The notes beneath the pieces are model-generated. The model did no database searches. It saw nothing but the letters and a program-made list of their open reading frames with translations, and was not told where the DNA came from. This document shows, piece by piece, positions 21,301-35,479 of a stretch of DNA of 35,479 bases. The stretch is from Bacteroidales bacterium (GTDB taxonomy: Bacteria; Bacteroidota; Bacteroidia; Bacteroidales; P3): positions 1 through 35,479 of the forward strand of contig JAFSQF010000015.1 in assembly GCA_017446745.1 (NCBI GenBank), in the 5' to 3' direction. Both the position numbers and the translations under genes were made by a program. Numbering within the stretch: the stretch's first letter is position 1; every line of letters starts with the position of its first letter.

Positions 21301-21744
21301 AAGGGTGAGGAAGAGGTAGTTGGCGGTGTCGTAGGGGTGGGTCAGTAGCTGGTACATGTCGAGGCTGCTGTTGTATGTCCAGCGGTTTGGCCCGGCGGCG
21401 TAGAAAAGGATGTAGTCGTCCTGGTCCATAATGCCGTTGGCGTTGGCGTCGTGCACCTCTATGGCCATCTCGGCCAGGTCGTCGGGGCGTGGGGTGCTGT
21501 TGTTGAGGTCCATAACGCCTCCGGGATGGCCAAACATCGCGATGTCGGCGGTTTTGCAGCCTTGCAGCGAGGCGATGTCGGTGGGGGAGAGGCGGTAGAT
21601 GCCATCGGCGGTCACGCCGATTTTCCACCACGGGCCAGTGGCAAGCACGGAATGGTTTGCCGTCTGGGCCTGGAGGCGTGGCATGGCAAAGGTGCAGAGC
21701 AGTACAGTTGCTGCCATGAATCTGAAGAGGACGATTCTTTTCAT
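18379..21744 (-). CDS. porU: Type IX secretion sortase PorU (C25 gingipain-like)
   Basis: 1121 residues. Signal peptide ending LQAQ, a long N-terminal beta region, a C25 (gingipain-like) cysteine peptidase domain with the catalytic His in NYIGHGSSQY and Cys in ITSTCTFGRFDD (around residues 640-680), then Ig-like domains and a type A T9SS C-terminal signal starting LHAMPNPASD and ending in GIYLARF to KIVVK. PorU removes C-terminal signals of T9SS cargo and attaches the products to A-LPS at the surface. The large size and the intact frame argue against decay here. It heads the minus-strand run with porV and diverges from porP. Confidence 0.94.
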   Translation of the reverse strand: MKRIVLFRFMAATVLLCTFAMPRLQAQTANHSVLATGPWWKIGVTADGIYRLSPTDIASLQGCKTADIAMFGHPGGVMDLNNSTPRPDDLAEMAIEVHDANANGIMDQDDYILFYAAGPNRWTYNSSLDMYQLLTHPYDTANYLFLTLQEGSHLRIAQADAQQASGEAITTCHTLLHYEKELLNTHRTGQIWVGEKFFASNSQHSVALHLHATPSAMKVGYALASISQQSSNFTATINGTSFSHPFNSSNRYSTFVQSIEPNGTDINAVFAYRYSENLAEGYLDYVEVDATTPIMMDGETSFFYCDALDSEVHPYNVAGTSADTRIWDVTDYNHVADMHCSRSGNTLTFTSPTNQRHLFVAFQPSAALQPATVLPLPNQDLHGSTQPDFVIVCHPDLRSQAQRLANLHSIMDDMEVLVASQNEVFNEFSGGQRDPMAVRQLLRLFRNRSLNDTSLRCPKHLLLFGKGTYDNRNLLKHNITDVVTYEPLASFDDDGSHSIATDDIFTFLDDNETGSVYESLDVSVGRLPAKDADEAARLVDKIERYMMRADLLDDNIRGDWRNTITLLADDADPDKPYDTSFTWSSEVTARQINSTYPHFTVEKIYADAYVQQSGADGSYYPDVNNALKKRLDYGCLLLNYIGHGSSQYIGTERFMMKSDISGYANTLQLPFFITSTCTFGRFDDPAETCGAEEFLLAHGAGIGCIAASRPISHIQSVNTAMIMQCLDPNHTIGEGIRTAKNQRITTQALTLVGDPALTLSFPKHRVVVTSINGRPVDPARYDTALVLSTVTVEGEIRDLDGNLVSDFDGRIFPEVYDRERLSRTLANDNEGCAVGFTQQNSLLYRGSVAVSGGRFSYHFIVPRDVAYAFDLCRLAHYAKSATEDASGVYQNLMLGGFDPDALVDDVRPSLRLFINDTNFRNGAVTDPNPTLLVLLHDSLGINSVGSGLGHDITAILDGNPNNIVVLNDFYETDINNDLNGTIRYLYSSLPSGRHTITVKAWNIFNYSASAEISFVVKNADTAFAQLHAMPNPASDHVCIRLEMNRATTLESARLEIFDLQGRRIVDASPAVNANSYVAGPVCWDLTYPDGSHARPGIYLARFTAIDNNGDKIVQNGKIVVK

Positions 21745-22021: not shown

Positions 22022-23026
22022 ATGATGAAGAAAGTAACAAAAATTGCCTTGCTCGCTGCGTTGCTTGTTGGGGCTGTTCAGAGCGGTAAAGCTCAGGATG
22101 TTGTTTTTTCACAGTTCTATGCCAATCCCATGTACATGAACCCTGCCTTTGCGGGGTCGAAGGTGTGTCCTCGCATCTCTATCAACTATCGTTCGCAGTG
22201 GCCCGCTCTGGTGAGTGCATTCACCACGGTGTCGGCCTCCTACGACCAGTATATTGATGCCCTTCATGGCGGCATAGGGGCGCTGCTGATGACCGACCGA
22301 CAGGGAGACCATGGCGCGTTGCAGACCAGCTCGGCTGCCGTCATGTACGCTTTCCGCTTCCAACTGGGGCGCAACGTTTGGGTCAATGCCGGCCTCAAGG
22401 CCGGGGTGACCAACACGAGCCTTGAATGGGATGGCTTGCGCTTCCCCGACATGATCGACCCCGTGGCCGGTTATATATTGAGCACCGGAGCCAAACCGCC
22501 GGCCGACGGCACAAGCAAATGGTACCTTGATTTCGACGCCGGCGCTTTGATCTATGGCCAGTCGTGGTATGCTGGCTTCTCTGCCGCCCACCTCACGCAG
22601 CCCAGCAATGGCTTCTATGGCGTCACTAAGCTGCCCATGAAGTTCACCGGCAATATTGGCGGACTGATAAACATCGCCGAGGAGGCGCGCCGCACCTCGT
22701 CGCTCGGTCTGGGCACCCCGGTCCTGTCGCCCAATTTCATCTATCAGTATCAGGCCGGATTCCATTATTTCAACTATGGCCTCTACCTCGACTGGATGCC
22801 TTTCCTGGTGGGTGTGTGGTTCCGCAACGGCCTCGAGAATGCCGACGCTTTCATCTTCCAGGTCGGCTTCCAGCAGGACTATTTCAAGATTGGCTACAGC
22901 TACGACGTCACCGTGTCGAAACTCTCCAACAACACTTCGGGAGCCCACGAGTTTAGCATCGGTATCCTTCTGCCGTGCCCCGAGAAGAAGCATAAAGTCA
23001 AAGCAATACGCTGCCCGTCGTTCTAA
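22022..23026 (+). CDS. porP: PorP/SprF-family type IX secretion membrane protein
   Basis: 334 residues. Signal peptide (about 1-24, ending GKAQ) followed by DVVFSQFYANPMYMNPAFAG, the defining start of the PorP/SprF family, then beta-barrel strands up to a C-terminal HEFSIGILLPC. PorP family proteins help the PorK/PorN ring and are needed for secretion or attachment of T9SS cargo. The family has many paralogs, but the position 131 bases in front of porK marks this as the porP of the core locus. The second Met may be the real start. Confidence 0.9.
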   Translation: MMKKVTKIALLAALLVGAVQSGKAQDVVFSQFYANPMYMNPAFAGSKVCPRISINYRSQWPALVSAFTTVSASYDQYIDALHGGIGALLMTDRQGDHGALQTSSAAVMYAFRFQLGRNVWVNAGLKAGVTNTSLEWDGLRFPDMIDPVAGYILSTGAKPPADGTSKWYLDFDAGALIYGQSWYAGFSAAHLTQPSNGFYGVTKLPMKFTGNIGGLINIAEEARRTSSLGLGTPVLSPNFIYQYQAGFHYFNYGLYLDWMPFLVGVWFRNGLENADAFIFQVGFQQDYFKIGYSYDVTVSKLSNNTSGAHEFSIGILLPCPEKKHKVKAIRCPSF

Positions 23027-24839: not shown

Positions 24840-25253
24840 CTAACCCAAGTTCACCCCTTGCTTAATCTAACTATCCTGTCATGAGCGATTTGGCGCTTCG
24901 TGGTTTTATGTTTGGGTACTACAGATTTTCATTTTTCGGAATGGGTAGTGGCGATAGCCGAGTTTGTTCATCTCGCTGTCTCTTTGGATTATATCGCGGT
25001 TTTGTCGTAAAAAACATACGGCAAAATTACGAGCGTTTTCGTTAAGCCGAATGCAGAGGGCAAATCACAAAGTGTTTGCACTATGCTGAGGCGAGAAAAC
25101 GGCCCTTGAAAAGGAACAATATTTCATACGCTCTGGGTAGTACAAACCGACTTTCGCTATTTTGCAGACTAGGTATTATTATAGATCAACACTTTACAAA
25201 TCTGATTGGTTGAGAAATGCCCAAAAAAAAATTCAGGGTTGAACTTGGGTTAG
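24840..25253. mobile_element. 414-bp element with CTAACCCAAGTTCA terminal inverted repeats
   Basis: Begins CTAACCCAAGTTCACCCC and ends GAACTTGGGTTAG; the outer 14 bases of both ends are perfect inverted repeats. On the minus strand the part next to the 24840 end encodes DSEMNKLGYRHYPFRKM and KICSTQT before a stop, the same C-terminal remnant as at 1182-1300 and 1464-1580. The other end matches 717-800. It is therefore an internally deleted, non-autonomous relative of the elements at 717-1649, in the opposite orientation. No target-site duplication is obvious. Confidence 0.7.
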
Positions 25254-25409
25254 TTTCGGAAGTAGGTGGTTCCGATAGGTATCGACATACCATCCATCAA
25301 CCAGAATATACTTATTGGGAGCATATTCCACTAAAATGCAATCACCATTCTGTGCTGGAAGTACGTCTATTCTCATTTTTGTGAGATTTTTTGCTCTCAA
25401 CTGAGACAT
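25236..25409 (-). pseudogene. 5' fragment of a metallo-beta-lactamase-fold hydrolase
   Basis: From an ATG at 25409, or more likely the in-frame ATG at 25376, the frame reads MRIDVLPAQNGDCILVEY and then ILVDGWYVDTYRNHLLPK. This is the first beta-strand pair of MBL-fold proteins of the ComEC/Rec2 type (usually GDCILI...ILIDGG). After Lys the frame enters the inverted repeat of the neighbouring element and stops within six codons, so the HxHxDH metal site is lost. It begins 2 bases after the stop of the nuclease-like gene, hence it was the third gene of that operon. Confidence 0.6.
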
Positions 25410-25411
25410 TT

Positions 25412-26077
25412 TTATATGGCATAGGTGTAGTTGTGGGAGATACGACGATATTCAAAGCCAAGAGATTCTATCGGTGGACTTGAAATAATAACACCGTCCT
25501 CACCTGCCTGACGCTCTGCTTCTACCTGTCCTCGGGAAAACACACTAACCGGATTTCCAATCAATTCCAGTTCGTCGAATGTGTATAACTTATAAGAACA
25601 CAAGCATACCCGCTTTGTCTGCGAGGCAAAATGCGCTGCTATCTCCGGCACATCATTCAAGGTTTGCAGCGACACCAGCAATTGCTGCTCAACCTTCTCA
25701 AACTTACCGCCCGGATATTCTTTCTTCCCCACAATCGGTTCCGTCAAGTTCTCCATCCCTTTTCCCGAACTGGTTATCTCATCAAGAATGATTGTCTGTC
25801 CATCCTCTGATTCCAGAATACAGTCACATTTCAGTCGCTTCTCATGGAATTTTGTACCCGCATACTTGTCAATATAACCTTCATAGTCAAGTACGGCAAT
25901 GTCACGCTGGGGCTCGTTTCCGAATGAAGCATACCCGTTTCCTGCCTCCACAATAATCGCTCCACCAACCTCCTTCAGGTCAAAACGACTGTCCGTTGTG
26001 TGACTCTCATCAATCTCCACCACGCGTCTCTGTCCGTAATGGCGGGCGAAATATGTATCAATCAACGCCTTTATCAT
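25412..26077 (-). CDS. PD-(D/E)XK-like nuclease partner of the upstream ATPase (module 1)
   Basis: 221 residues of no family I can name. The central part, KCDCIL (83-88) and TIILDEITSS (95-104), has the Asp, beta-strand and Glu-x-Lys layout of PD-(D/E)XK nucleases, but with Thr in place of the Lys. A second Asp (RDIAVLDYEG) and Lys-rich GKKEYPGGKFEKVEQQL surround it. The module 2 protein at 30983-31477 has the same block with a proper E-S-K. It overlaps the ATPase gene by 4 bases (ATGA), so the two should be made together. The fold is inferred from motif spacing; activity is uncertain because of the Thr. Confidence 0.5.
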   Translation of the reverse strand: MIKALIDTYFARHYGQRRVVEIDESHTTDSRFDLKEVGGAIIVEAGNGYASFGNEPQRDIAVLDYEGYIDKYAGTKFHEKRLKCDCILESEDGQTIILDEITSSGKGMENLTEPIVGKKEYPGGKFEKVEQQLLVSLQTLNDVPEIAAHFASQTKRVCLCSYKLYTFDELELIGNPVSVFSRGQVEAERQAGEDGVIISSPPIESLGFEYRRISHNYTYAI

Positions 26078-27213
26078 ATCGCCTCATATCGTTCATAGAT
26101 GTCCGTGATATCCTCCGACAGTCGGGCCGTGTCTATCAAGTGTACACCTTCGTTCTTCACCTTTAGGTCTCTCATCTCACCGTTCTGTATGGCATACACA
26201 TTCAGTTCATCGAAACTGATGGCAGCACCATCCACCTTGTCCTTCTTGTCAGCGGCCTTCAGCAGTAGATTTAGTTGGTTGATGATATATGGGCTATGCG
26301 TTGTAATCGTGAGGGTATGTTTCCGCCTTCCGTTGCAACACGCCACGATGAAGTTCAATAGGTCTCGCTGTGTGGTCGGATACAGGTTCAGTTCTGGCTC
26401 CTCTATCACAAAACTAGTCCTGTGCGTCTCCAACAGGCGCCCTATACGCAATTCCGTGGCACGGCTGCTGCCGTCTTTCACCAGATAATTCCTCACATTC
26501 CTGCGGTCACGCTCCTGGGCCACACTCAGAGTCTTGCCCTCCACACTGTCCTGATAGAAAATCTTGGAGTAGAAGTCCACAGCCACTGCCACAGGAACAA
26601 TACTTTGCAATCCGCTCGACCCGTCATCCAGCCTTATGTCATACTCTTTCCCGTCATCCACCACTTTATTCCTGAGTTCGCCGTCTTCCATCTTTTGATA
26701 GTATTTTATCCCCAGATGTCCAAGGTTCAACCTGTTCACATAGTCATAATGGCTCCGTGCACTGTCAAAATCCACTGCAAAACTCCTGATGTTGTTATCT
26801 TTCATCTGCAACATATCCCTGATAGCTACGGCACGCTCTGCAGGCACATACAGCACCTTCACACGCTCATACGTCTGTTTGGCTTTCAATGTGATGTTGC
26901 ACATCCCCTCACCATACCTGATGACCGTGTAGTCCGACTCATATTCTATCACAGAGTCTTTCCGCAAATAACCGTGCATCGAGTGGAAATTCTCCAACTG
27001 AGGCAGAAACATTTTCTTATACTGCACCAAGTCATCCTGACGGTCAGGATGTGTCTGGACCTCTTTCTCCATCCAGGTGCAGTAGCTCACAATCTTTGCG
27101 ATAGTACTCTTACCACTACTCTGCCTACCAATGAAGAAATTGAATCTCTTCAGTTCAAATGAGACTTCCTTCACAGGTCCCACGTTCTTTATATGCAGTT
27201 TTATCATAAACAC
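26074..27213 (-). CDS. AAA_21/OLD-like ATPase (module 1)
   Basis: 379 residues of the SMC/ABC-like ATPase class used in OLD, Septu and similar defence genes. Walker A GRQSSGKST (29-37), a middle VPAERAVAIRD (123-133), a signature-like DGSSGLQS (197-204), Walker B FVIEEPELNLYP (268-279) and switch His 306 (TTHSPYII). There is no fused TOPRIM domain as in OLD or GajA, so any cutting activity must come from the partner gene that overlaps its stop. The start may be the third residue (MIKLHIKNVGPV). A Bacteroidetes -7-like TATTTTTG lies at 27266-27259 on the same strand, about 46 bases upstream. Confidence 0.8.
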   Translation of the reverse strand: MFMIKLHIKNVGPVKEVSFELKRFNFFIGRQSSGKSTIAKIVSYCTWMEKEVQTHPDRQDDLVQYKKMFLPQLENFHSMHGYLRKDSVIEYESDYTVIRYGEGMCNITLKAKQTYERVKVLYVPAERAVAIRDMLQMKDNNIRSFAVDFDSARSHYDYVNRLNLGHLGIKYYQKMEDGELRNKVVDDGKEYDIRLDDGSSGLQSIVPVAVAVDFYSKIFYQDSVEGKTLSVAQERDRRNVRNYLVKDGSSRATELRIGRLLETHRTSFVIEEPELNLYPTTQRDLLNFIVACCNGRRKHTLTITTHSPYIINQLNLLLKAADKKDKVDGAAISFDELNVYAIQNGEMRDLKVKNEGVHLIDTARLSEDITDIYERYEAI

Positions 27214-27370
27214 GACAATTTAAGAGTCTGCCAACTCGAAGGTAAAAAAAACTTATTGCAAAAATAACGTCTTTCCCCCGAATTTATTGCATTCCTTCAC
27301 AACATTTATTCTTCTTTAACGCAGAGCCTAAGAGCAGAATCATGAATTAGTCCCTGCCTTCCCTGATTCT

Positions 27371-27972
27371 CTATTTGATATTCTCACTCAATGCAGTCCT
27401 AATTCCTTCCAAGACTATAAGAAACTTCCATGCAGCCATAATTTCCATTTCTGGGTTTAGGCAATATACGATATCCAAGGTGTCTCTTACAGAGTCTCCT
27501 TGGTAGTGCGACAAAGCATTTCTTACCTCTGGCTTAAAATACCGTATTTGAGTATAAGCGTTCAGATCTGCCTCAATATCGTCTGCTGCATCATGCTTAC
27601 CTATAGCAGGTTTTATCATCTTACGCCAAAGCGTGTCGTTACGCTTACTTTCCTCATATCCATAAGGTTGAGAAAGCGCAGAATTAATGTATATTTTGTT
27701 CCTCGATAAATGTAGGAAATTCTCTCATAAGTGCTCTCAGATTCAATAATAGCACGCCATAGCGCATCTCTATTCGAAACAGAATAATTGGAATATAGAA
27801 GGATATCGATGATTGACTGATAGTATTTTCTGATTTCATCAGGCCCACTAGATGATAACGCATCATATAATGTCAGATAACGTGGAAATTGTCCAGATAC
27901 CATAATATGGATTGATGCCTCCAATGGCTTGGAAAACCAACTGTTCGCTCTGAAAGCGTGCAAAGATTCCAT
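27371..27972 (-). pseudogene. HEPN-like protein gene with a one-base frameshift
   Basis: The first part starts at the ATG at 27972 (MESLHAFRANSWFSKPL), two bases after the stop of the small frame before it. Near 27725 the reading breaks: the frame that continues gives NFLHLSRNKIYINSALSQPY and then WRKMIKPAIGKHDAADD, while the original frame turns unlike protein and stops at 27616. One added A in the short A-run there would join both into a helical protein of about 200 residues. Its C-terminal part has VRNALSHYQG, a clear HEPN R-N-x3-H motif. It lies next to ApeA, another HEPN protein, on the same strand. The last 82 codons also have their own ATG (27619). Confidence 0.5.
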
Positions 27973-27973
27973 A

Positions 27974-28177
27974 TTAACGCCCCTTTCGTATCTTCCTAAT
28001 AATAGAACTAAACCTTGAAGAGCACAAGGCATTCAGGTCCTCAGTATTCGTCCAATCTATGTATTCCTTGATGACAGGCAACAACTTGTATATCGTTTCT
28101 ATATCTTTGAGTTTCTTTTCCTCCGGTTCTGCCAGGAAATCATCTACCTTGTACCAAATTTTTATTCCGTTATGAAC
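27974..28177 (-). other. Open frame without a usual start codon, after apeA
   Basis: A frame of 67 codons begins after a TAG and overlaps the last bases of apeA. It reads WYKVDDFLAEPEEKKLKD, then YKLLPVIKEYIDWTNTEDLN and ends SSIIRKIRKGR. It is acidic then basic, helical and protein-like, and its stop sits two bases before the ATG of the HEPN-like gene, as in a coupled operon. It contains no ATG or GTG; TTG codons lie in the middle. It may be a small protein with an unusual start, or the tail of a gene whose start has been lost. No motif recognised. Confidence 0.35.
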
Positions 28178-29475
28178 CTACTATTGCTATTCTTGAAAAT
28201 CATGTCAATCGCCGCATTATCCAGCCCCAAATCTGATAGCACACAACATATCAGCAGCCTACGCACTTTCTTGGTCAAAGCATGAAGTTCAAATCCATCC
28301 AGGATATGTTCTTTTCTTGAGCGGGGCATAAAGTGCGCATAGTAGTCTCTCGAATCCACCAACTCATCCACATTGATGCCATCTCTTTTAATCCGCGAAA
28401 CGTCCGAAAACTTGTCTATTACCGTCTTCATACGATTGGTGATGCTTCCCTTGTATTTCGACCTTATGCAATATCCGTCGAGTGCTCGCGCCAAAATCAA
28501 AAAGTCCATATTGCTGAACAGCCTCTTCTTCTCCAAACTGTCCACAAGATTATTCCTGACCGGATACATATCGTTAACATCAGCATACCAGGCTCGCATT
28601 ATTTCTCCATAACGGTCTTTAATAGCTTCATATCCAAACAGAAACCTTGCATTATCAACCTTTTCCGAGTCTTTTCCTCGCCAATGGCTTGAAAAGAAAT
28701 CGATGGAATGGTAATGCTTATCTCCGCTGTCGTACTCTTGATAGTAATCCTCGTCATAGAAAGACATTTCCGACGCCTCAACCACTCGCATCGTAGCCAA
28801 CGAGAGGAATTCCTCAAACTGATAGACTCGCGAAAGCAACTTGTTGAAAGACACCATTTCTTTATGCGATATTTCCAACCAAGACGTTTGTCCTATTCCG
28901 TTATTCAACATCGCATAGTCACCAGTAAAACTTGCCCCTCCCTTTATCTGCAATTTGAAACCATCATCAAGTTCCACTGCATTCAGAGTCTTGCCGCCCA
29001 CAATGGCTTCAAACGACAAACTTATAATCTGCCCTTTCTTTTCCTTATCCTCCAGAAAGGTCTCTCGCAGAACTCCAGGATGACACCAATGAGGCAACTC
29101 AGGATAATGCACGGCTATTTTAAACCGCCCTTCATCATCCATCCCTCCATAATGTCTGCCAATGAAGCAATATATGCAAGTATAACGGATGATTGGGAAG
29201 AAGCTTGACATATTCACACTCCCCGACGGGTAACACTTCACCAGTGTCACCTTCTTGGCATTGCCCAAGACACCGTGAATAATACCTTCTTCCGCTTTAT
29301 TCAGGAAAGCCACTACAGCATTATTTTCCTTGTCAAACGTACCTATCAGCTCAAGGATGATGCTTTCACCCGGCTTATAGGACAGCACCCCTGCCACCAT
29401 TTTGTCCGGATCATCTGGCCTCCACCAGTACCCTTTGAATTCAAATGCCTCGTCAAGCCTCATCTTCATCATCAT
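28162..29475 (-). CDS. apeA: Anti-phage HEPN protein ApeA
   Basis: 437 residues, or 433 from the fifth Met. The N-terminus (FEFKGYWWRPDDPDKMVAGV, then ILELIGTFD) matches the ApeA N-terminal domain with its GYWW motif. The C-terminal third is a HEPN-type helical bundle with the RNase motif in DSRDYYAHFMPR (R-x4-H, around residue 376). ApeA is a known single-gene anti-phage system thought to act by abortive RNA cleavage. The gene overlaps the preceding HEAT-like gene by 23 bases and ends in RFITE as family members do. It is intact, unlike some neighbours. Confidence 0.8.
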   Translation of the reverse strand: MMMKMRLDEAFEFKGYWWRPDDPDKMVAGVLSYKPGESIILELIGTFDKENNAVVAFLNKAEEGIIHGVLGNAKKVTLVKCYPSGSVNMSSFFPIIRYTCIYCFIGRHYGGMDDEGRFKIAVHYPELPHWCHPGVLRETFLEDKEKKGQIISLSFEAIVGGKTLNAVELDDGFKLQIKGGASFTGDYAMLNNGIGQTSWLEISHKEMVSFNKLLSRVYQFEEFLSLATMRVVEASEMSFYDEDYYQEYDSGDKHYHSIDFFSSHWRGKDSEKVDNARFLFGYEAIKDRYGEIMRAWYADVNDMYPVRNNLVDSLEKKRLFSNMDFLILARALDGYCIRSKYKGSITNRMKTVIDKFSDVSRIKRDGINVDELVDSRDYYAHFMPRSRKEHILDGFELHALTKKVRRLLICCVLSDLGLDNAAIDMIFKNSNSRFITE

Positions 29476-29917
29476 TTAACGTCCACTGATGCCCTGGCAG
29501 TCTTCCGGGAAGCATAAGGTTATCTTCCCATCGCTGACTCTGTTCCCCATAGTATCTCAATCTATCTATCTCCAACGTAGCCCAATTGCTCACGTCCGGA
29601 TTCTTGTGTTTCGTCAGCGGCTCTATCAACTTTGCTCTGGCATCATAGGTTGAAGTTGGTCCTGAGAACGAACCCAATTTGTCGCTCAAAGCAGCTCTAA
29701 CCAGCTTGTCACTTCCATAGTTGTCCATCAGCAGCATCACCGCCTCCGACAACCCATCACCATTTAGTAGCGGAGCAAGCGCCATCAATCGGTATGGCCC
29801 CACGTCCGGATGCTGTCCGCACCAGGCAATAATCTCTTGCATATTCTCCTTCTTGAATATCAATTCAGGGTAGGGATTGTGCAAAGCACTGAATCCGAAA
29901 GCATAGTAAAACTTCAT
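29453..29917 (-). CDS. HEAT-like helical protein, possibly the C-terminal half of the TIR-like gene
   Basis: 154 residues. Pairs of helices such as PYRLMALAPLL, DKLVRAALSDKLGSF and NPDVSNWATLEIDRL look like HEAT repeats, ending in an acidic tail (NDDEDEA). The start overlaps the TIR-like gene by 53 bases in another frame. Dropping one T of the TTTT at about 29903-29906 would fuse both into one protein of about 259 residues reading RPNDEVYYAFGF, which resembles the RPNxxVxYE motif in TIR-like proteins. A separate HEAT-type gene is the alternative. No catalytic residue is visible. Confidence 0.5.
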   Translation of the reverse strand: MKFYYAFGFSALHNPYPELIFKKENMQEIIAWCGQHPDVGPYRLMALAPLLNGDGLSEAVMLLMDNYGSDKLVRAALSDKLGSFSGPTSTYDARAKLIEPLTKHKNPDVSNWATLEIDRLRYYGEQSQRWEDNLMLPGRLPGHQWTLNDDEDEA

Positions 29918-30233
29918 CGTTGGGTCTTTCTCTTAAATCCGGTTTCTGGTTTACCCACCGCTGCAACCTGTTGAATTTCTTATCTACAGATATATCCGCA
30001 ATGAAGATGTGGCATTCGTCATTCCTTTTCAGACAGGTGTCTATCATATCCGGAGTTCCAGGTTCACCACCAGTCCCTTCAAGTATCTCGAAGGACATGT
30101 TCTTTAGTTCACCTTTACCCTTCACTTCGCTTGCCGCCTTCTCAATGCACGACCAGATAAACTGTTTGTTATTCAGTTTATCCGTCTTTGACGACGTTTG
30201 CCAAGAGAAAAATATCTTCAACACGTTTTTCAT
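29865..30233 (-). CDS. TIR-like nucleotide-binding domain protein, probably frameshifted
   Basis: 122 residues. The start KIFFSWQTSSKTDKLNNKQF, followed by FEILEGTGGEPGTPDMID and HIFIADISVD, is the signature of a TIR-like/predicted nucleotide-binding domain common in bacterial defence genes (FxSWQ ... GxPGxPD ... DIFIAD). The domain should go on past RPNDEV, but the frame leaves after a T-run and stops (CFAQSLP), while the overlapping frame continues. So it is likely the N-terminal half of a gene broken by one base, or a truncated domain. In intact relatives the domain is thought to bind or cleave nucleotides. Confidence 0.55.
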   Translation of the reverse strand: MKNVLKIFFSWQTSSKTDKLNNKQFIWSCIEKAASEVKGKGELKNMSFEILEGTGGEPGTPDMIDTCLKRNDECHIFIADISVDKKFNRLQRWVNQKPDLRERPNDEVLLCFRIQCFAQSLP

Positions 30234-30271
30234 TCTTTCTTCTTATCACCTAATCATTCACCCTGAACCAT

Positions 30272-30454
30272 TCACCCTGAACCATAAGTCTTTCTTTTAT
30301 CTTCATCCAGTTCACGCTCAGCTATATCCCAGATGCAAACCTCAGCGTGTTCCACGGGAATATTTGCGATACAGTCAGAGTGTCTCTCCACTTCCGCCAC
30401 TCTCCGTCCTTCAATATAAACGCAACTATCTTCACCGCCTTCTTTGCGAACCAT
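30272..30454 (-). CDS. Small hypothetical protein (60 aa)
   Basis: A short frame 38 bases upstream of the TIR-like gene, same strand. It reads CVYIEGRRVAEVERHSDCIA, then EVCIWDIAERELDEDKRK. The composition is protein-like and codon use resembles the neighbours. The stop is followed by a direct repeat GGTTCAGGGTGAATG. No motif was recognised. It could be a small partner of the TIR-like protein or the remnant of a longer gene, since no promoter or ribosome site is clear. Confidence 0.4.
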   Translation of the reverse strand: MVRKEGGEDSCVYIEGRRVAEVERHSDCIANIPVEHAEVCIWDIAERELDEDKRKTYGSG

Positions 30455-30647
30455 GAATCATGAACCATTATTCTTCACCGTAAGTATTCCCTTTCACGCC
30501 ATTGCATCTGGCCGCACGGGGTGTAACTGCAATTGTCATTGTTATCTCTTTGTTTTTTTTCACTTCGTTTATTATTCTTTTTCATCATTGATAACGAAAC
30601 CATTCCGTTTTTATTGCATCTCCTTTAAAATTTCTGTTTTTATTCAA
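30455..30647. other. AT-rich spacer, no gene seen
   Basis: Between the terminator of the module 2 operon and the 60-residue gene. It is T-rich on the plus strand and carries short words such as ATGAACCATTATTC. The promoter of the TIR-like/ApeA group may lie here, but no TAnnTTTG with a properly placed TTTG was found. Confidence 0.4.
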
Positions 30648-30679
30648 ATAAAAAAGGCTGGCGCCCATAGGCACCAGCC
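30648..30679 (-). terminator. Rho-independent terminator of the module 2 operon
   Basis: On the minus strand GGCTGGTGCC-TATG-GGCGCCAGCC, a 10-bp stem with one G-U pair, is followed by TTTTTTATTTG. It lies 140 bases after the M42-like fragment and separates the ATPase/nuclease module 2 from the TIR-like/ApeA group. Confidence 0.85.
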
Positions 30680-30741
30680 CTTGTTTATTGCTAGCTATAC
30701 TTCAGACCACATTCAAGCATTCAATCAATAACGCACTCACA

Positions 30742-30779
30742 CATTCAAACATCCAAACATTCAAACATTCAAACATTCA
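30742..30779. repeat. 8-bp tandem repeat CATTCAAA
   Basis: CATTCAAA, CATCCAAA, CATTCAAA, CATTCAAA and a partial fifth copy. The flanks repeat relatives of the word (CATTCAAG, CATTCAAT, CACACATTC) from about 30709 to 30805. It lies between the M42-like fragment and the terminator, in a spacer without a gene. Confidence 0.8.
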
Positions 30780-30821
30780 CGCACTCTCACATTCACACAC
30801 TCACAATTCACTAATCCTCAC

Positions 30822-30977
30822 TCATGCTGCCATTCGCCGTGGGACAGGGACCTGTCCCTCCGTCCCCACCACCCTGTCCACGTACCGGCCCATCCTCTCC
30901 CTGAAGATGTCCTGCACCGCCCCTTCATATCCCGAAGGTGCCCCCGCCGTCAATAGTATGTCCAGTAATTCTTCCAT
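30822..30977 (-). pseudogene. N-terminal fragment resembling an M42-family aminopeptidase
   Basis: 51 codons from an ATG 5 bases after the nuclease stop: MEELLDILLTAGAPSGYEGA, then VQDIFRERMGRYVDRV. The pattern L-L-T-x-x-G-x-S-G-Y-E-x-x-V with the following YVD is that of the start of M42 metallo-aminopeptidases. The frame then runs into the palindrome AGGGACAGGTCCCTGTCCC and stops, so the metal site is missing. It is most simply a gene fragment at an old deletion border. A genuine small protein cannot be ruled out. Confidence 0.45.
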
Positions 30978-30982
30978 TGCTC

Positions 30983-31477
30983 TTATTTCACTATCAATCC
31001 TTTGCTCATTGCGCCTTGCTCATTCAGCACTTTCACGCAGGCATCATCAAATCCCCACAACTTGAGGGTCTTCTTCATTGTCATCTTCAACTGGTCAAGC
31101 ACCGGTGGCAGCCACTCTTTCTTGTGCCCGTTGATTATCAAGCAAAACTCATAGTTCTGACGGGCTAAGGGTATTGATTGCAGACTCTGTGGTACAAGGT
31201 CAGGTTGCTGGCGTTTCTGGTGAACGGCACTATAGTAGGTGTAACTGTCCGTGAACTTCTGTGCGATATCTTCTGCAAATAACAGAAACGAGCCAGCGTT
31301 CTGAGGTTGTGGCGACGAACTCTTTGACTCAATCAAACACACTTTGCCATTGTGTTGTACCACACATTCACATGGCTTTACGCCCTCAATCTTGCTAAAA
31401 CGCTCCGACTTCTCAATATAGAAGATATCGTTTTCATCAAACGAGAACGTCATGCCCGACTCTTCAAATGTCACCAT
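30983..31477 (-). CDS. PD-(D/E)XK-type nuclease (module 2)
   Basis: 164 residues. The block KPCECVVQHNGKVCLIESKS (34-53) gives the PD-(D/E)XK pattern: Glu 37, a beta-hairpin, then E50-x-K52. The rest is helical with a Trp/Lys-rich stretch (HKKEWLPPVLDQL). The same block, with Thr for Lys, is in the module 1 protein at 25412-26077. It starts 11 bases after the stop of the ATPase gene, so both are one operon. The likely role is a nuclease controlled by the ATPase in a defence module; the family is not one I can name. Confidence 0.6.
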   Translation of the reverse strand: MVTFEESGMTFSFDENDIFYIEKSERFSKIEGVKPCECVVQHNGKVCLIESKSSSPQPQNAGSFLLFAEDIAQKFTDSYTYYSAVHQKRQQPDLVPQSLQSIPLARQNYEFCLIINGHKKEWLPPVLDQLKMTMKKTLKLWGFDDACVKVLNEQGAMSKGLIVK

Positions 31478-31488
31478 ATCGCCCCCTC

Positions 31489-32493
31489 CTAAAGATTGAT
31501 TTCTTCTGTATAAAGCCTTATAGACTCCTCAATAATCGGATTCTGAGGCATCTCCTCACGAAGATCGGAAGTTCCCCAGCCACCATTTTCATCAAACGAC
31601 ACCACGGGAATAGACATTTTCTTTTGATGTGCCAGCAGGTACAACTTCTTTATCACAAAATAGGAGTGTGATGCAATGAAAAACTGCAGACCGGCCTTCG
31701 TCAGTTCCACAATGATGTCCATCAGTTGCGACACCAGCCTAGGGTGCAATGCACATTCTGGCTCGTCAATGAAGATGATGGAGTCCTTCGAGAGATAATG
31801 GTTCCCCAACAAGGCATCCAATATTGAGAGTTTCTTCACACCCTCTGATGCCATGGCTATGCTGATAGTCTGTTTCCCTTCACGGAACGCCCATTCCTTC
31901 CGCTCCGTATCATATTCTATATGCCCGCCAATGGCGCTTTCCAAAGCGGTTCTTGATACGGAAAACTCTTTGTAGTTGCGCCCCTTCGTGCTGGGTGTCA
32001 AGGCTTTTGCAAGATCATAGTAAGTGTCGTCAAAACCAAATTCCTGATAGTCATCTCGCACTCTGACTATAATCTGTTGCAGAGAGATAATCTCCTTGGC
32101 GGGCAGAAAGATGGAATTCTGCTGACGGGGCTGACAGGTGTTCTTCGTCACCGTCACTTGTTTGTTCGCCGATGGACCGAAGGTATATGCAAATTCCTGA
32201 TCTCCATCCAGAGTCATGGCAAATTCCACAGTCTTGCTTCCGATAGAGACCAGTTTGCCCAGTTGATCCGGCTGATAGGTCCAGTACAATTTGTCGAACA
32301 GAATCTCAGCTTCCCGCCTCACCTCTTTGCCACGTTTGTATGCCTCAATGGTTTTGATGGCTGAGTAGAGAGCCTTCAGCAGGTATGTCTTACCCGACTT
32401 GTTCGGTCCTATCACCAAGTTAATCCTACCGGTGTTCTTCCATTGGAAGTCCTTTACCGGTCCGAATCCCTTTATCGTTGTCGAAGTTATCAT
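31489..32493 (-). CDS. AAA_21/OLD-like ATPase (module 2)
   Basis: 334 residues from the ATG at 32493, chosen over one 28 codons upstream because MITSTTIKGFGPVKDF matches the usual start of this ATPase class. Walker A GPNKSGKT (29-36), middle FLPAKEIISLQQ (129-140), signature-like ASEGVKKLS (215-223), Walker B IIFIDEPECALHP (239-251) and switch His 276 (IASHSYFV). The middle PAK/E motif and overall order match the module 1 ATPase, so the two are related. There is no fused nuclease; the next gene supplies a PD-(D/E)XK candidate. It is likely a sensor or clamp in a two-gene defence system. Confidence 0.8.
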   Translation of the reverse strand: MITSTTIKGFGPVKDFQWKNTGRINLVIGPNKSGKTYLLKALYSAIKTIEAYKRGKEVRREAEILFDKLYWTYQPDQLGKLVSIGSKTVEFAMTLDGDQEFAYTFGPSANKQVTVTKNTCQPRQQNSIFLPAKEIISLQQIIVRVRDDYQEFGFDDTYYDLAKALTPSTKGRNYKEFSVSRTALESAIGGHIEYDTERKEWAFREGKQTISIAMASEGVKKLSILDALLGNHYLSKDSIIFIDEPECALHPRLVSQLMDIIVELTKAGLQFFIASHSYFVIKKLYLLAHQKKMSIPVVSFDENGGWGTSDLREEMPQNPIIEESIRLYTEEINL

Positions 32494-32781
32494 ATCTTTA
32501 TGTCTTCTAAGCCTAACAGTTGACAAAGTTAACGATTCTTCCCCAATATTATTGCTACACCCCTCAAAAATTGCCATATTTTAACATTTGCCAACAAATC
32601 CCATACACAAAAACACCAATTATCCGCTTAATCCGTATAATCCGTGTTCGCATAAGAAGGTTCTCTAATTCTCCAATTCTTGACAGATTAATATTCGTTT
32701 CATTCGCAGGATTCGTGTTCGAAATATTTCTGTGCTATCTGTGATTTCTGTGTGACATTTGTGTTAAGGTTAAGGTTATCG
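32494..32781. other. AT-rich spacer with ATTCGTG and TCCGT words
   Basis: 288 bases between the module 2 ATPase and the cupin gene. It repeats short words (CTTAATCCGTATAATCCGTG, ATTCGTGTTCG, GGTTAAGGTTAAGGTTA at 32763-32778). It presumably holds the promoter of the ATPase gene. No gene was seen. Confidence 0.5.
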
Positions 32782-33180: not shown

Positions 33181-34433
33181 CCAACTATCGCCTCCTTGAT
33201 ACTCTCCACAATATACCTCACATCCTCATCTGTCACATACGGCCCAGCGGGAAGGCACATGCCGATCTTGAATAATGCCTCGCTCACTCCATTCACGTAT
33301 GCAGGAGCATCCTTATAGCATGGCTGCTTGTGCATAGGCTTCCACAGCGGACGGGCCTCTATCTGCGCCTGGTCCATAATCATACGCAAGGCCTCCACAT
33401 TGGCGTTGGGCTCACAGTCGGTATGCGCACTTGTTGCAGCATGTATCACACCAGCAGCGCCCCCCCACAGCACCCGTCACGATGGCCTTGTAGGCATTCT
33501 CCTGACCCTTAATCTTCACATTCTCATCAATGGTGATGGTGCAAAGCCAGAAGTTTGAGTCATAGCGGCTGTCGGGATTCCCGTGTACGGTAATACCCTT
33601 CACATCCTTCAGCAGCTCCTCATACAGCGCCTGCACATGCTTATGGTGGGAAATGTGGTCGTTCACCACCGTCATCTGTCCACGACCGATACCTGCACAG
33701 ATGTTACTCATACGGTAGTTATATCCAATCTTCTCGTGCTGGTAGTAGGGGTAGCTCTCGCGGTACTGCGTGGCATACATCATAATCTCGCGCCATTCAT
33801 CCTCGTTGGCGGTCACCAAGGCACCGCCCCCAGAGGTTGTAATCATCTTGTTGCCGTTGAAGGAGAGCACACCGTACTTACCAAACGTTCCCAGCACCTG
33901 CCCATTCCAACGGCTACCGAAGCCTTCGGCAGCATCCTCCACCACAGGGATATCGTAGCGGTTGGCGATCTCCATGATGCGGTCAATCTGGTACGGCATA
34001 CCATACAGCGCCACCGGCACGATGGCCGCAGGCTTCTTGCCCGTCTTGGCGATGCGGTCTTTGATGGCCTCTTCCATCAGTTCAGGGTCCATATTCCATG
34101 AATCCTTCTCCGAATCCACGAACACAGGTGTTGCACCCAGGTAGGTTATTGGGTGAGAAGAAGCGCAGAACGTAAAGCTCTGCACAATCACTTCGTCGCC
34201 AGGTTTCACACCGCAGTTCAACAATGCAAGATGCACCGCTGCCGTTCCAGCAGACAAAGCAACAACACGTTTGTTTTCACCAACAAACGCTTCCAGATCT
34301 TTCTCAAACCCGTTGACGTTGGGCCCCAGGGGCACCACCCAGTTGGTATCAAAAGCTTCCTTGATGTATTTCTGTTCAAGTCCTGCTTCGCTCATGTGAG
34401 CCAACACAGGTAAATTCTTTTTCTTTCTGACAT
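33177..34433 (-). pseudogene. DegT/DnrJ/EryC1/StrS sugar aminotransferase, two frameshifts
   Basis: About 417 codons when joined. The start should be ATG at 34433 (MSERKRIYLC); one missing T near 34410 shifts the frame to LAHMSEAGLEQKY. The middle part holds the whole PLP core: GTAAVHLAL, ALYGMPYQ, VVEDAAEGFGS and the Schiff-base Lys in SFNGNKMITTSGGG. At a run of seven C (33461-33467) the frame shifts again to GGAAGVIHAATSAHTDC and on to PLWKPMHKQP and LCLPAGPYVTDEDV near the end. PglE-like PLP enzymes of this kind put an amino group on UDP-4-keto sugars for glycans. Both breaks are one-base homopolymer changes, so they may be sequencing errors. Confidence 0.75.
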
Positions 34434-34532
34434 AATATGATGTTTTAGTTATACTCGATTACTAGTGATGCGTTAATTTTAAATTTGTTTTTATAATTTA
34501 TTGAAATTATTATATTTATAGCGATTTTAACT

Positions 34533-34563
34533 TTTGGCGATTTGAAATGAATGAGTATCTTTG
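34533..34563 (+). promoter_or_regulatory. Bacteroidetes-type promoter of the IS4 transposase
   Basis: TTTG (34533-34536), a 19-base spacer and TATCTTTG (34556-34563), an exact match to the Bacteroidetes -33 TTTG and -7 TAnnTTTG consensus. The start codon at 34584 follows 20 bases later, after TAACACTGCAAGGAT, where AAGGA may serve as a ribosome site. Confidence 0.75.
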
Positions 34564-34583
34564 CAGCCTAACACTGCAAGGAT

Positions 34584-35479
34584 ATGAACACAGGACGATA
34601 CATTTTCTCTCAGGTGACCGACTTCATACCACGATACGAGTTCGACAAGTGCGTTGCACGATACTTCGGTGATTACCATACGAGGAGTTTTACATGCTAC
34701 AACCAGTTTCTGTACCTGCTGTTCGGTCAGCTTACGGCTTGCCAATCGATGCGTGATGTCTGTCTGTGTCTGGAGGCGCACAAGAACAGCCTGTATCATC
34801 TCGGCATAGCCGTCTCGGTCGACAGCACGTCGCTCACCAAGGCCAACGAGAAACGGGACTACCGCATATACGAGGATTTCGGACGCTACCTGATTGGACT
34901 TGTGAGGCCAATGTACTCTTCCGAGGCCGTGCCCAGCGTGGATTTGCCCGAATATGAACTTATGGCTGTGGACTCCACGACAATCTCATGCAGCATCAAG
35001 CTGTTGGCCTGGGCTCTCGGCAAATACTCCAAAGGCGCCGTCAAGATGCACACTGTGATGAGTCTCAGAGGAAGCATTCCTGTAGACATACACATTACCC
35101 ACGGCAAATGGCACGACAGTAACATGCTAGATGTGATGAATTTCAATCCGAACGACCTGTTTGTCATGGACAAGGCCTATGTCGACTTCGAGGCTCTGTA
35201 CCGCATGCACAAGGCAGGCGCTTTTTTCGTGACGCGTGCCAAGGAGAACATGAAGTACGAGGTGATTGAGTCCATAGGCGGGTTTGACGCCGATATTGGT
35301 GTCCGTGGCGACTACATCATCCGTGTCACCGGCACCAAGTCAAAGAAACTCTACCCCGAACCGATGCGGATGGTGGTGTACTATGATGCCGACAATGACA
35401 GAGAACTCGCATTCATCACCAACAACACGGAGATTGCCGCCATCGATGTGGCAAACCTTTACAGAAACCGTTGGCAGAT
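34584..35479 (+). CDS. IS4-family transposase (DUF4372 type), cut by the window edge
   Basis: 298 codons from ATG at 34584, open to the end of the window. An N-terminal DUF4372 domain (MNTGRYIFSQVTDFIPRYEF, then LLFGQLTACQSMRD) precedes the DDE domain: first Asp in LMAVDSTTISC (about 132), second Asp in FVMDKAYVDFEALY (about 194), then GAFFVTRAKENMKYEV. It stops at NLYRNRWQ, just before the expected YREK-type Glu. The frame is intact so far, so the element may be active. It points away from the aminotransferase gene. Its left inverted repeat should lie between 34434 and 34530. Confidence 0.85.
   Translation, partial: MNTGRYIFSQVTDFIPRYEFDKCVARYFGDYHTRSFTCYNQFLYLLFGQLTACQSMRDVCLCLEAHKNSLYHLGIAVSVDSTSLTKANEKRDYRIYEDFGRYLIGLVRPMYSSEAVPSVDLPEYELMAVDSTTISCSIKLLAWALGKYSKGAVKMHTVMSLRGSIPVDIHITHGKWHDSNMLDVMNFNPNDLFVMDKAYVDFEALYRMHKAGAFFVTRAKENMKYEVIESIGGFDADIGVRGDYIIRVTGTKSKKLYPEPMRMVVYYDADNDRELAFITNNTEIAAIDVANLYRNRWQ

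What the first reader, a model, noticed from the sequence alone, without database searches (positions are those of the whole stretch)
25236..32493. Two similar ATPase plus PD-(D/E)XK modules frame ApeA and a second HEPN protein
Seen: module 1 (27213 to 25236) and module 2 (32493 to 30822) each have an AAA_21/OLD-like ATPase, then a small protein with a C-[DE]-C-[IV]-[LV] strand followed by an E-x-[TK]-S-S strand. Both ATPases share a middle PA[EK] motif in addition to the Walker motifs. Known: ATPases of this class work with nucleases in OLD, Gabija and Septu, but none of those pairs has this partner as far as I can tell. Between the modules are ApeA, another HEPN-like protein and a TIR-like/HEAT gene. 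Inference: a defence island with two paralogous copies of a little-described ATPase/nuclease system, module 1 having once carried an MBL-fold third gene.
Basis: partly seen in the sequence, partly recalled or inferred. Interest (0 to 1): 0.8.

Follow-up and report, generated by a model that had tools for sequence, protein, structure and literature searches.

The report
Two OLD-type ATPase–nuclease defence pairs
This stretch of a bacterial genome carries two different examples of the same kind of two-gene phage-defence device (a sensor ATPase plus a small nuclease-like partner), one already listed as a candidate system and the other an odd variant whose partner lacks a usual catalytic residue.

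Summary
In detail: both modules are ATPase + small-protein gene pairs with the stated motifs. They are not recent paralogues. Module 2 matches both parts of the PADLOC candidate HEC-02. Module 1's ATPase matches PDC-M29A; its partner matches no library family but is a remote PDC-M29B homologue by profile comparison, so I call it PDC-M29-like. The ATPases share 21% identity; the partner families give no significant profile match. The architecture is not undescribed: WonAB (2025) is a tested OLD-ABC ATPase + PD-(D/E)xK abortive-infection pair, and such dyads are reported beside BREX. Of 52 M29A-like ATPases read, 49 are followed by a [D/E]...E-x-[K/T] partner: 42 E-x-K, 7 E-x-T. The window is in the E-x-T group, whose seven members share a lysine exactly 7 residues before the conserved helix Gln. 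I read both modules as sensor/effector abortive-infection devices, module 1 with a moved or lost catalytic lysine. HEC-02 also sits within one BREX operon and directly after a BREX-2 gene on another plasmid. A 65-bp upstream segment is shared by module 1 and a second HEC-02 pair of this genome. Structure prediction failed (pLDDT 36).

The parts
26074..27213 (-). module 1 ATPase, OLD-class ABC ATPase, PDC-M29A-like (the ATG at 27207 may be the real start rather than GTG 27213)
   Evidence: PADLOC PDC-M29A 2.8e-64; Pfam AAA_15 2.3e-13, AAA_21 1.7e-12; Walker A K35, SSG-L-Q, EEPE, H306 invariant in 5 of 5 aligned
25412..26077 (-). module 1 partner, 221 aa, remote PDC-M29B homologue with D85, E100-x-T102, K125, Q132
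   Evidence: no hit in PADLOC, Pfam or NCBIfam at E <= 1; profile match to M29B, E 2.1e-7 alone and 3.5e-9 with two sisters; alignment A3
31489..32493 (-). module 2 ATPase, HEC-02A (334 aa; an ORF start at 32577 exists, homologues start at 32493)
   Evidence: PADLOC HEC-02A 2e-140, Pfam AAA_21 2.8e-19; start by homology
30983..31477 (-). module 2 partner, HEC-02B, PD-(D/E)XK-like with E37, E50-x-K52 and K74
   Evidence: PADLOC HEC-02B 9.3e-46; E-x-[KR] and the later Lys kept in 12 of 12 aligned
28162..29475 (-). ApeA-like protein, a separate defence gene between the modules
   Evidence: Pfam ApeA_NTD1 5.2e-38, HEPN_Apea 2.6e-12; PADLOC PDC-S58 1.5e-52
27371..28032 (-). broken HEPN-like gene in two frames (R-x4-H motif RNALSH, by eye)
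   Evidence: read from sequence; no family hit for the pieces
   Evidence: read from sequence; no significant family hit for the pieces
25239..25388 (-). short ORF resembling the N-terminus of an MBL-fold protein; probably not part of module 1
   Evidence: by eye; no Pfam hit
27256..27320 (-). 65-bp segment upstream of module 1 shared with two other contigs of the genome; contains a promoter-like core
32520..32587 (-). weaker copy of the same upstream segment in front of module 2
   Evidence: second-best place in the window for a 70-base matrix built from the other three copies: 26.3 bits, next 10.5 and -5.8

Best explanation
Each module is a two-gene abortive-infection device: an OLD-class ABC ATPase as sensor and regulator, and a small PD-(D/E)XK-like protein, encoded directly after it, as effector. 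By analogy with WonAB and PARIS, a phage signal changes the ATPase state and thereby releases or switches on the effector, which cuts a nucleic acid the cell needs (an RNA of translation, by analogy) and stops phage production. Module 2 is HEC-02. Module 1 is PDC-M29-like; its partner keeps the Asp and Glu but has Thr at the E-x-K lysine, and the group's shared K125, seven residues before Q132, may stand in for it. Shown here: gene pairing, families, conservation. Inferred: fold, complex, activation, target.
For: Family hits. Pairing in 49 of 52 ATPases. Among weak Pfam hits of 19 M29B proteins, NERD (3 members), NucS_C (2), PDDEXK_9 (1) and HSDR_N_2 (1) are PD-(D/E)XK-type (that label recalled); the nine other families have one member each. 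Two ATPases of the M29A tree have instead a small partner that reads, by eye, like a TOPRIM nuclease (L021, L028), the nuclease type of PARIS. A HEC-02 pair lies between brxC and pglX on one plasmid and directly after BREX-2 pglX on another; PARIS genes lie within Salmonella BREX (PMC11341690, passages). WonAB: both genes, ATPase residues and nuclease Lys needed; translation stops (PMC12137116, passages). PARIS mechanism: PMC11455837, whole text.
Against: No phage test exists for either module. Module 1's partner lacks the E-x-K lysine. Its AlphaFold2 model is unusable (pLDDT 36.3), and profile searches of the PDB found no nuclease relative. WonAB sequences were not compared, so homology to it is untested. 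For WonAB the authors rule out simple sequestration of WonB by WonA (PMC12137116), so the PARIS-style holding model may not carry over. Salmonella PARIS was not triggered by Ocr in the study cited for its BREX location (PMC11341690).
Confidence: 0.68

Rival explanations
1. The module 1 partner is a catalytically dead PD-(D/E)XK domain used as a ligand or nucleic-acid sensor or as an adaptor, so module 1 works by a different effector route.
For: E-x-K lysine replaced by Thr in 7 of 7 members of the group; inactive REase domains paired with NTPases are described as sensors (PMC12839542, passage).
Against: D85, E100 and Q132 are invariant in all 9 aligned sequences and K125 in all 7 E-x-T members, which a dead domain would not need. 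The E-x-K sisters L056/L058 nest inside the E-x-T group with support, so the residue seems exchangeable.
Confidence: 0.25
2. The pairs are restriction-like: the effector cuts phage DNA directly rather than a host RNA.
For: Many PD-(D/E)XK enzymes are DNases (recalled); GajA of Gabija, another OLD-class protein, cleaves DNA (PMC12796447, passage).
Against: In WonAB, phage DNA replication goes on (2.7-fold lower), WonB overproduction does not degrade genomic DNA, and translation stops (PMC12137116).
Confidence: 0.2
3. The two modules and the genes between them form one composite system.
For: In G013 a module-1 type pair lies 115 bp upstream of a HEC-02 pair on the same strand; both modules share an upstream element.
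Against: The five other module-1 type loci read (L004, L010-L013) have no HEC-02 next to them in the stretch held, which is short for L010, L012 and L013. In G205 and G369 the two ATPase families are on different contigs. Clustering is normal for defence islands.
Confidence: 0.06
4. The island is decaying and the pairs are non-functional relics.
For: The neighbouring HEPN-like, TIR-like and MBL-like genes are broken.
Against: All four module genes are open reading frames of full length with the ATPase motifs kept.
Confidence: 0.08

Closest known systems
WonAB (Vibrio prophage WASA-1; PMC12137116, passages)
   Same: two genes: OLD-class ABC ATPase then a small PD-(D/E)xK-variant protein; the residue positions given for WonA (K34, E300, H333) resemble those of some M29A-like ATPases, e.g. 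L004, L015, L017-L019, L026 (K33-34, E293-304, H328-338)
   Different: sequence relation not tested; most M29A-like ATPases have other spacings (often K39, E283-285, H317-319); WonB needs its Lys (K71), module 1 has Thr at the E-x-K position
PADLOC PDC-M29 (candidate)
   Same: module 1 ATPase matches M29A at 2.8e-64; partner is a remote M29B homologue by profile
   Different: partner not found by either M29B model; E-x-T, and an insertion carrying K125
PADLOC HEC-02 (Hma-embedded candidate)
   Same: module 2 matches both components over nearly full length
   Different: no difference found; no experimental test found
PARIS (AriA/AriB), OLD class 4
   Same: split OLD-class ATPase plus small nuclease; both PARIS and HEC-02 occur in BREX loci
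   Different: AriB is a TOPRIM nuclease; here the partner is PD-(D/E)XK-like
PD-T4-4
   Same: two genes of similar organisation, modelled with a PD-(D/E)xK nuclease in PMC12137116 (legend); PD-T4-4_A hits both ATPases (8.6e-20 module 2, 1.4e-13 module 1)
   Different: other ATPase inserts and C-terminal extension according to that paper; no PD-T4-4 nuclease model hit the partners here
Septu, Gabija, OLD
   Same: related ATPase class (PtuA, GajA and Old hits)
   Different: other or fused nuclease (recalled, and PMC12796447 passages)

Membership tests
HEC-02 (module 2) | HEC-02A ATPase | tested here: met
   PDLC04214 2e-140, profile positions 1-335 of 338
HEC-02 (module 2) | HEC-02B adjacent downstream | tested here: met
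   PDLC04221 9.3e-46, positions 1-169 of 171; 11 bp apart
PDC-M29 (module 1) | PDC-M29A ATPase | tested here: met
   2.8e-64 over positions 1-336 of 410
PDC-M29 (module 1) | PDC-M29B partner by PADLOC model | tested here: not met
   0 families for the window protein; 3 of the 9 members of A3 match M29B
PDC-M29 (module 1) | PDC-M29B homology by profile-profile comparison | tested here: met
   E-x-T group vs M29B probability 93.6, E 2.1e-7; with the two sisters 96.1, 3.5e-9
PD-(D/E)XK superfamily (module 1 partner) | Asp, then E-x-K on the next strand | tested here: not met
   D85 and E100 present, Lys replaced by T102 in 7 of 7
PD-(D/E)XK superfamily (module 2 partner) | Asp/Glu, then E-x-K on the next strand | tested here: met
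   E37 and E50-S-K52 in the window; E-x-K in 11 of 12 and E-x-R in 1 of 12 HEC-02B
PD-(D/E)XK superfamily | alpha/beta fold of the superfamily | tested here: inconclusive
   model of module 1 partner pLDDT 36.3, no fold search made; no PDB profile hit of use; module 2 partner never folded
WonAB | sequence homology to WonA and WonB | not tested
   I did not obtain WonAB sequences
WonAB | both genes needed; translation arrest on phage infection | not testable with these tools
   bench work
PARIS | TOPRIM (AriB) partner | tested here: not met
   module 2 partner matches only HEC-02B models, module 1 partner none
OLD-class ABC ATPase | Walker A, ABC signature, Walker B with E-P-E, H-loop; Pfam AAA_15/AAA_21 | tested here: met
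   PDB profile hit of module 1 ATPases to an OLD family protein, 6p74, 7.1e-5 over 70 positions

The most novel reading that the evidence does not exclude
Module 1 stands for a subfamily of OLD-ABC/PD-(D/E)XK-like pairs in which the catalytic lysine has moved from the E-x-K strand (now Thr) to an insertion-borne position before the next helix (K125, seven residues before Q132). It would be an active effector invisible to current nuclease and PADLOC models. In this genome it would be expressed from the same type of upstream element as HEC-02 pairs, as part of a small set of co-regulated defence operons.
Probability: 0.25. Interest if true: 0.55.

Novelty: new variant of a known kind. Interest (0 to 1): 0.4.

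Why it matters
WonAB is the only OLD-ABC ATPase + PD-(D/E)XK pair whose working is dissected in the papers I read; its authors speak of a larger, as yet uncharacterised family of ABC-ATPase sensors paired with nuclease effectors. The census here (42 E-x-K, 7 E-x-T, 2 TOPRIM-like and 1 absent partner for 52 related ATPases) points to effector exchange on a fixed sensor, and it names residues (D85, E100, K125, Q132) that make the missing-lysine question testable with a few substitutions. HEC-02 in BREX loci, as PARIS is, suggests a back-up role that can be tested with anti-restriction proteins.

Tried and rejected
Rejected: recent paralogy of the modules; an MBL third gene as part of module 1 (none of six relatives has it in the stretch held, by eye); the shared 'SS' after E-x-[TK] as evidence of homology; the relaxed upstream motif as a defence-specific element. 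With up to 2 mismatches that motif occurs in 50 of 118 genus genomes, with 0 matches of the reversed control pattern; of the 30 loci read, most precede assorted genes that do not look like defence by eye. So the core is a general promoter type, and only the longer 20-base extension is special.

Led nowhere: small protein 1 in plasmids, phages and viral contigs (no relative); HEC-02B in viral contigs by single sequence. The module 1 ATPase has relatives in 3 of 72,556 plasmid and 1 of 50,697 phage records at E <= 1e-15 (26-30% identity), which I did not open. Profile searches of the PDB with the partners gave nothing of use. AlphaFold2 of the module 1 partner with a two-row alignment gave pLDDT 36.3, so I made no fold search. 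The second structure job (module 2 partner) never got into the queue. The A7 alignment was plainly misaligned and not used. The exact 23-base pattern in viral contigs gave one hit, at the edge of a phage coding gene, taken as chance. Krishnan et al. 2020 and Steczkiewicz et al. 2012 were not held and are known to me only through citing passages and recall. Paper searches found 0 and 1 papers.
Full report
What is there. Module 2 matches both parts of the PADLOC candidate HEC-02 (A: 2e-140; B: 9.3e-46). Module 1's ATPase matches PDC-M29A at 2.8e-64; its partner matches no family at E <= 1. The ApeA-like gene has ApeA_NTD1 and HEPN_Apea and matches PDC-S58.

One kind, two families. The ATPases align at 21% identity; the profile match between the ATPase families is confined to the Walker B to H-loop region, 70 columns. 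The partners show no significant match to each other (probability 0.4, T vs HEC02B probability 3.6). M29B of the usual type against HEC-02B gives probability 70, E 4.1e-5, over 60 columns, so a distant common fold is plausible but not shown. An ATPase tree with two HEC-02A rows puts these on a long separate branch.

Census of module 1 relatives. All counts include the window's own genome. The small protein was found in 3 of 190 genomes of the family, in 3 of 393 of the order with a profile, and in one genome contigs locus (L004). The ATPase profile at E <= 1e-30 was found in 32 of 393 genomes of the order and 14 of 296 of the phylum. I read 52 ATPases: the window, L004, L009-L013, 28 more, 15, and two viral contigs (L111, L112). 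Dropped as the same places again: L001, L005-L008, L014, L025. Not read for lack of a locus: G450:C207 and G202:C76. Viral L113 was left out as too distant. Of the 52, 42 are followed by a partner with [D/E]...E-x-K, 7 by C-D...E-x-T, 2 (L021, L028) by a different small protein that reads like a TOPRIM nuclease, and 1 (L057) by none. The regular expressions were imperfect: that missed L022 and L041 and mis-scored L032 and L047, and that labelled L022, L036 and L042 'other'. I scored these by reading the sequences. The ATPase of L049 has an internal stop but an intact partner; L050 and L052 are nearly identical. In the 7 E-x-T pairs the genes overlap by 4 bases every time.

The E-x-T variant. 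In alignment A3 (the 7 E-x-T members plus the E-x-K sisters L056 and L058) the window's F32, C84, D85, E100, Q132, V143, G207 and F208 are invariant. K125 is invariant in the 7 E-x-T members, always 7 residues before Q132, within a stretch that this alignment leaves as a gap in the two sisters. On the ATPase tree of 49 of the 52 (L041, L049 and L057 were not in it) the E-x-T label needs three changes, at least two of them forced by supported branches: L056/L058 nest inside the group and L011 falls outside it. The exchange therefore looks repeated or reversible. The partner's homology to M29B rests on hhalign (E 2.1e-7 alone, 3.5e-9 with sisters). Evidence for the PD-(D/E)XK fold is indirect: weak Pfam hits of the 19 M29B proteins to NERD (3), NucS_C (2), PDDEXK_9 (1) and HSDR_N_2 (1), with nine other families hit by one member each. 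The AlphaFold2 model (pLDDT 36.3) decides nothing. By the E-x-K test the module 1 partner fails as a PD-(D/E)XK member, so I call it PD-(D/E)XK-like.

HEC-02. HEC-02A at E <= 1e-40 occurs in 8 of 295 order genomes, the window's included, and in 0 of 14 control genomes; the window's own genome and G205 each have two copies. The second own copy, on contig C46, is HEC-02A 5.7e-119 and HEC-02B 1.3e-50. Twelve HEC-02B sequences were aligned, one of them (L067) incomplete. L009 (partly masked), L069 and L115 (no such partner seen), and L070 and L072 (incomplete) were left out. E-x-K is in 11 and E-x-R in 1; a later Lys (window K74) is in 12 of 12. A HEC-02 pair also lies on an IMG/VR contig (L114). 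On plasmids, 7 of 72,556 records carry HEC-02A at E <= 1e-15, the best 53% identical, from Comamonas. Of the 4 I opened, all have the partner next door. In Methylomonas the pair lies between brxC and pglX; in Polaromonas it directly follows BREX-2 pglX, with a hypothetical gene behind it. PARIS genes sit within Salmonella BREX (PMC11341690, passages), where, however, Ocr did not trigger that PARIS.

Co-location. In G013 a module-1 type pair is followed, 115 bp on, by a HEC-02 pair, then by ORFs that read like a cytosine methyltransferase and a restriction enzyme. With the window this makes two genomes with both near each other. The other five module-1 type loci (L004, L010-L013) have no HEC-02 adjacent in the stretch held. 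I read this as island clustering.

How it most likely works. WonAB (PMC12137116, passages) is an OLD-ABC ATPase with a PD-(D/E)xK-variant partner. Both genes and the ATPase and nuclease residues are needed; infection is aborted with translation stopped; overproduced WonB is toxic only with active WonA present, which its authors take to rule out simple sequestration. They place it in a larger uncharacterised family of ABC-ATPase sensors paired with nuclease effectors. PARIS (PMC11455837, whole text) shows an OLD-class ATPase ring holding a nuclease until a phage anti-restriction protein releases it. PMC12839542 (passages) reports OLD-ABC ATPases paired with HNH, PD-(D/E)XK or PIN nucleases in 594 taxa around BREX-type systems as likely back-up effectors. 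I transfer a sensor/effector mechanism to both modules by inference. Whether release or activation is the switch is open, and for module 1 so is catalysis.

Print status. Searches for 'PDC-M29' and for 'HEC-02' with 'PADLOC' found 0 papers. HEC and PDC systems are described as candidates of unknown mechanism or not experimentally validated (PMC10855318, passages). WonAB appears in 2 papers (passages of both read). Only this open library was searched.

Noticed in passing
window 27256-27320; G000:C46:56404-56468; G000:C87:15120-15186; G046:C50:81370-81410: A 65-bp segment just upstream of module 1 is 88% and 81% identical to segments upstream of a second HEC-02 pair and of a DUF1653-led operon whose three genes have no PADLOC hit. 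A 41-base pattern from it (up to 3 mismatches) occurs in only 2 of 189 family genomes. The one place outside this genome lies between a Drt3b reverse transcriptase and a PDC-S01 candidate, about 120 bp before the latter. Its core resembles a general promoter of the genus.
   Followed up: partly
window 32520-32587 and 30580-30649: Weaker matches of that element in front of module 2 (26.3 bits) and some 350 bp upstream of the TIR-like gene (10.5 bits); the next place in the window scores -5.8 with the 70-base matrix. With shorter blocks of the matrix the module 2 place still ranks second, but the third place stands out less.
   Followed up: partly
window 30980-30850: Right after HEC-02B, a short stretch reads by eye like the N-terminus of an M42-type peptidase (MEELLDILLTAGAPSGYE...), cut short.
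   Followed up: no
L004 5948-6568 and 8802-9386: The two-gene module lies between two copies of the start of a wecB-like gene (name by eye), the first one interrupted, as if the cassette came with a duplication of its target.
   Followed up: no
L021 827-1354; L028 842-1363: Two PDC-M29A-like ATPases have, in place of the E-x-K partner, a small protein that reads by eye like a TOPRIM nuclease; no PADLOC hit.
   Followed up: partly
L139, L140: HEC-02 pairs in BREX loci on plasmids of Polaromonas and Methylomonas.
   Followed up: yes
window 33412-35477: A transposase gene (DUF4372 + DDE_Tnp_1) on the + strand at the window's end, next to a DegT aminotransferase gene; a similar-looking aminotransferase ORF lies beside the C87 operon.
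   Followed up: no
window 18379-21744 and 22022-23026: A C25-family peptidase with a weak secretion-tail match and a PorP/SprF type IX secretion membrane protein.
   Followed up: no
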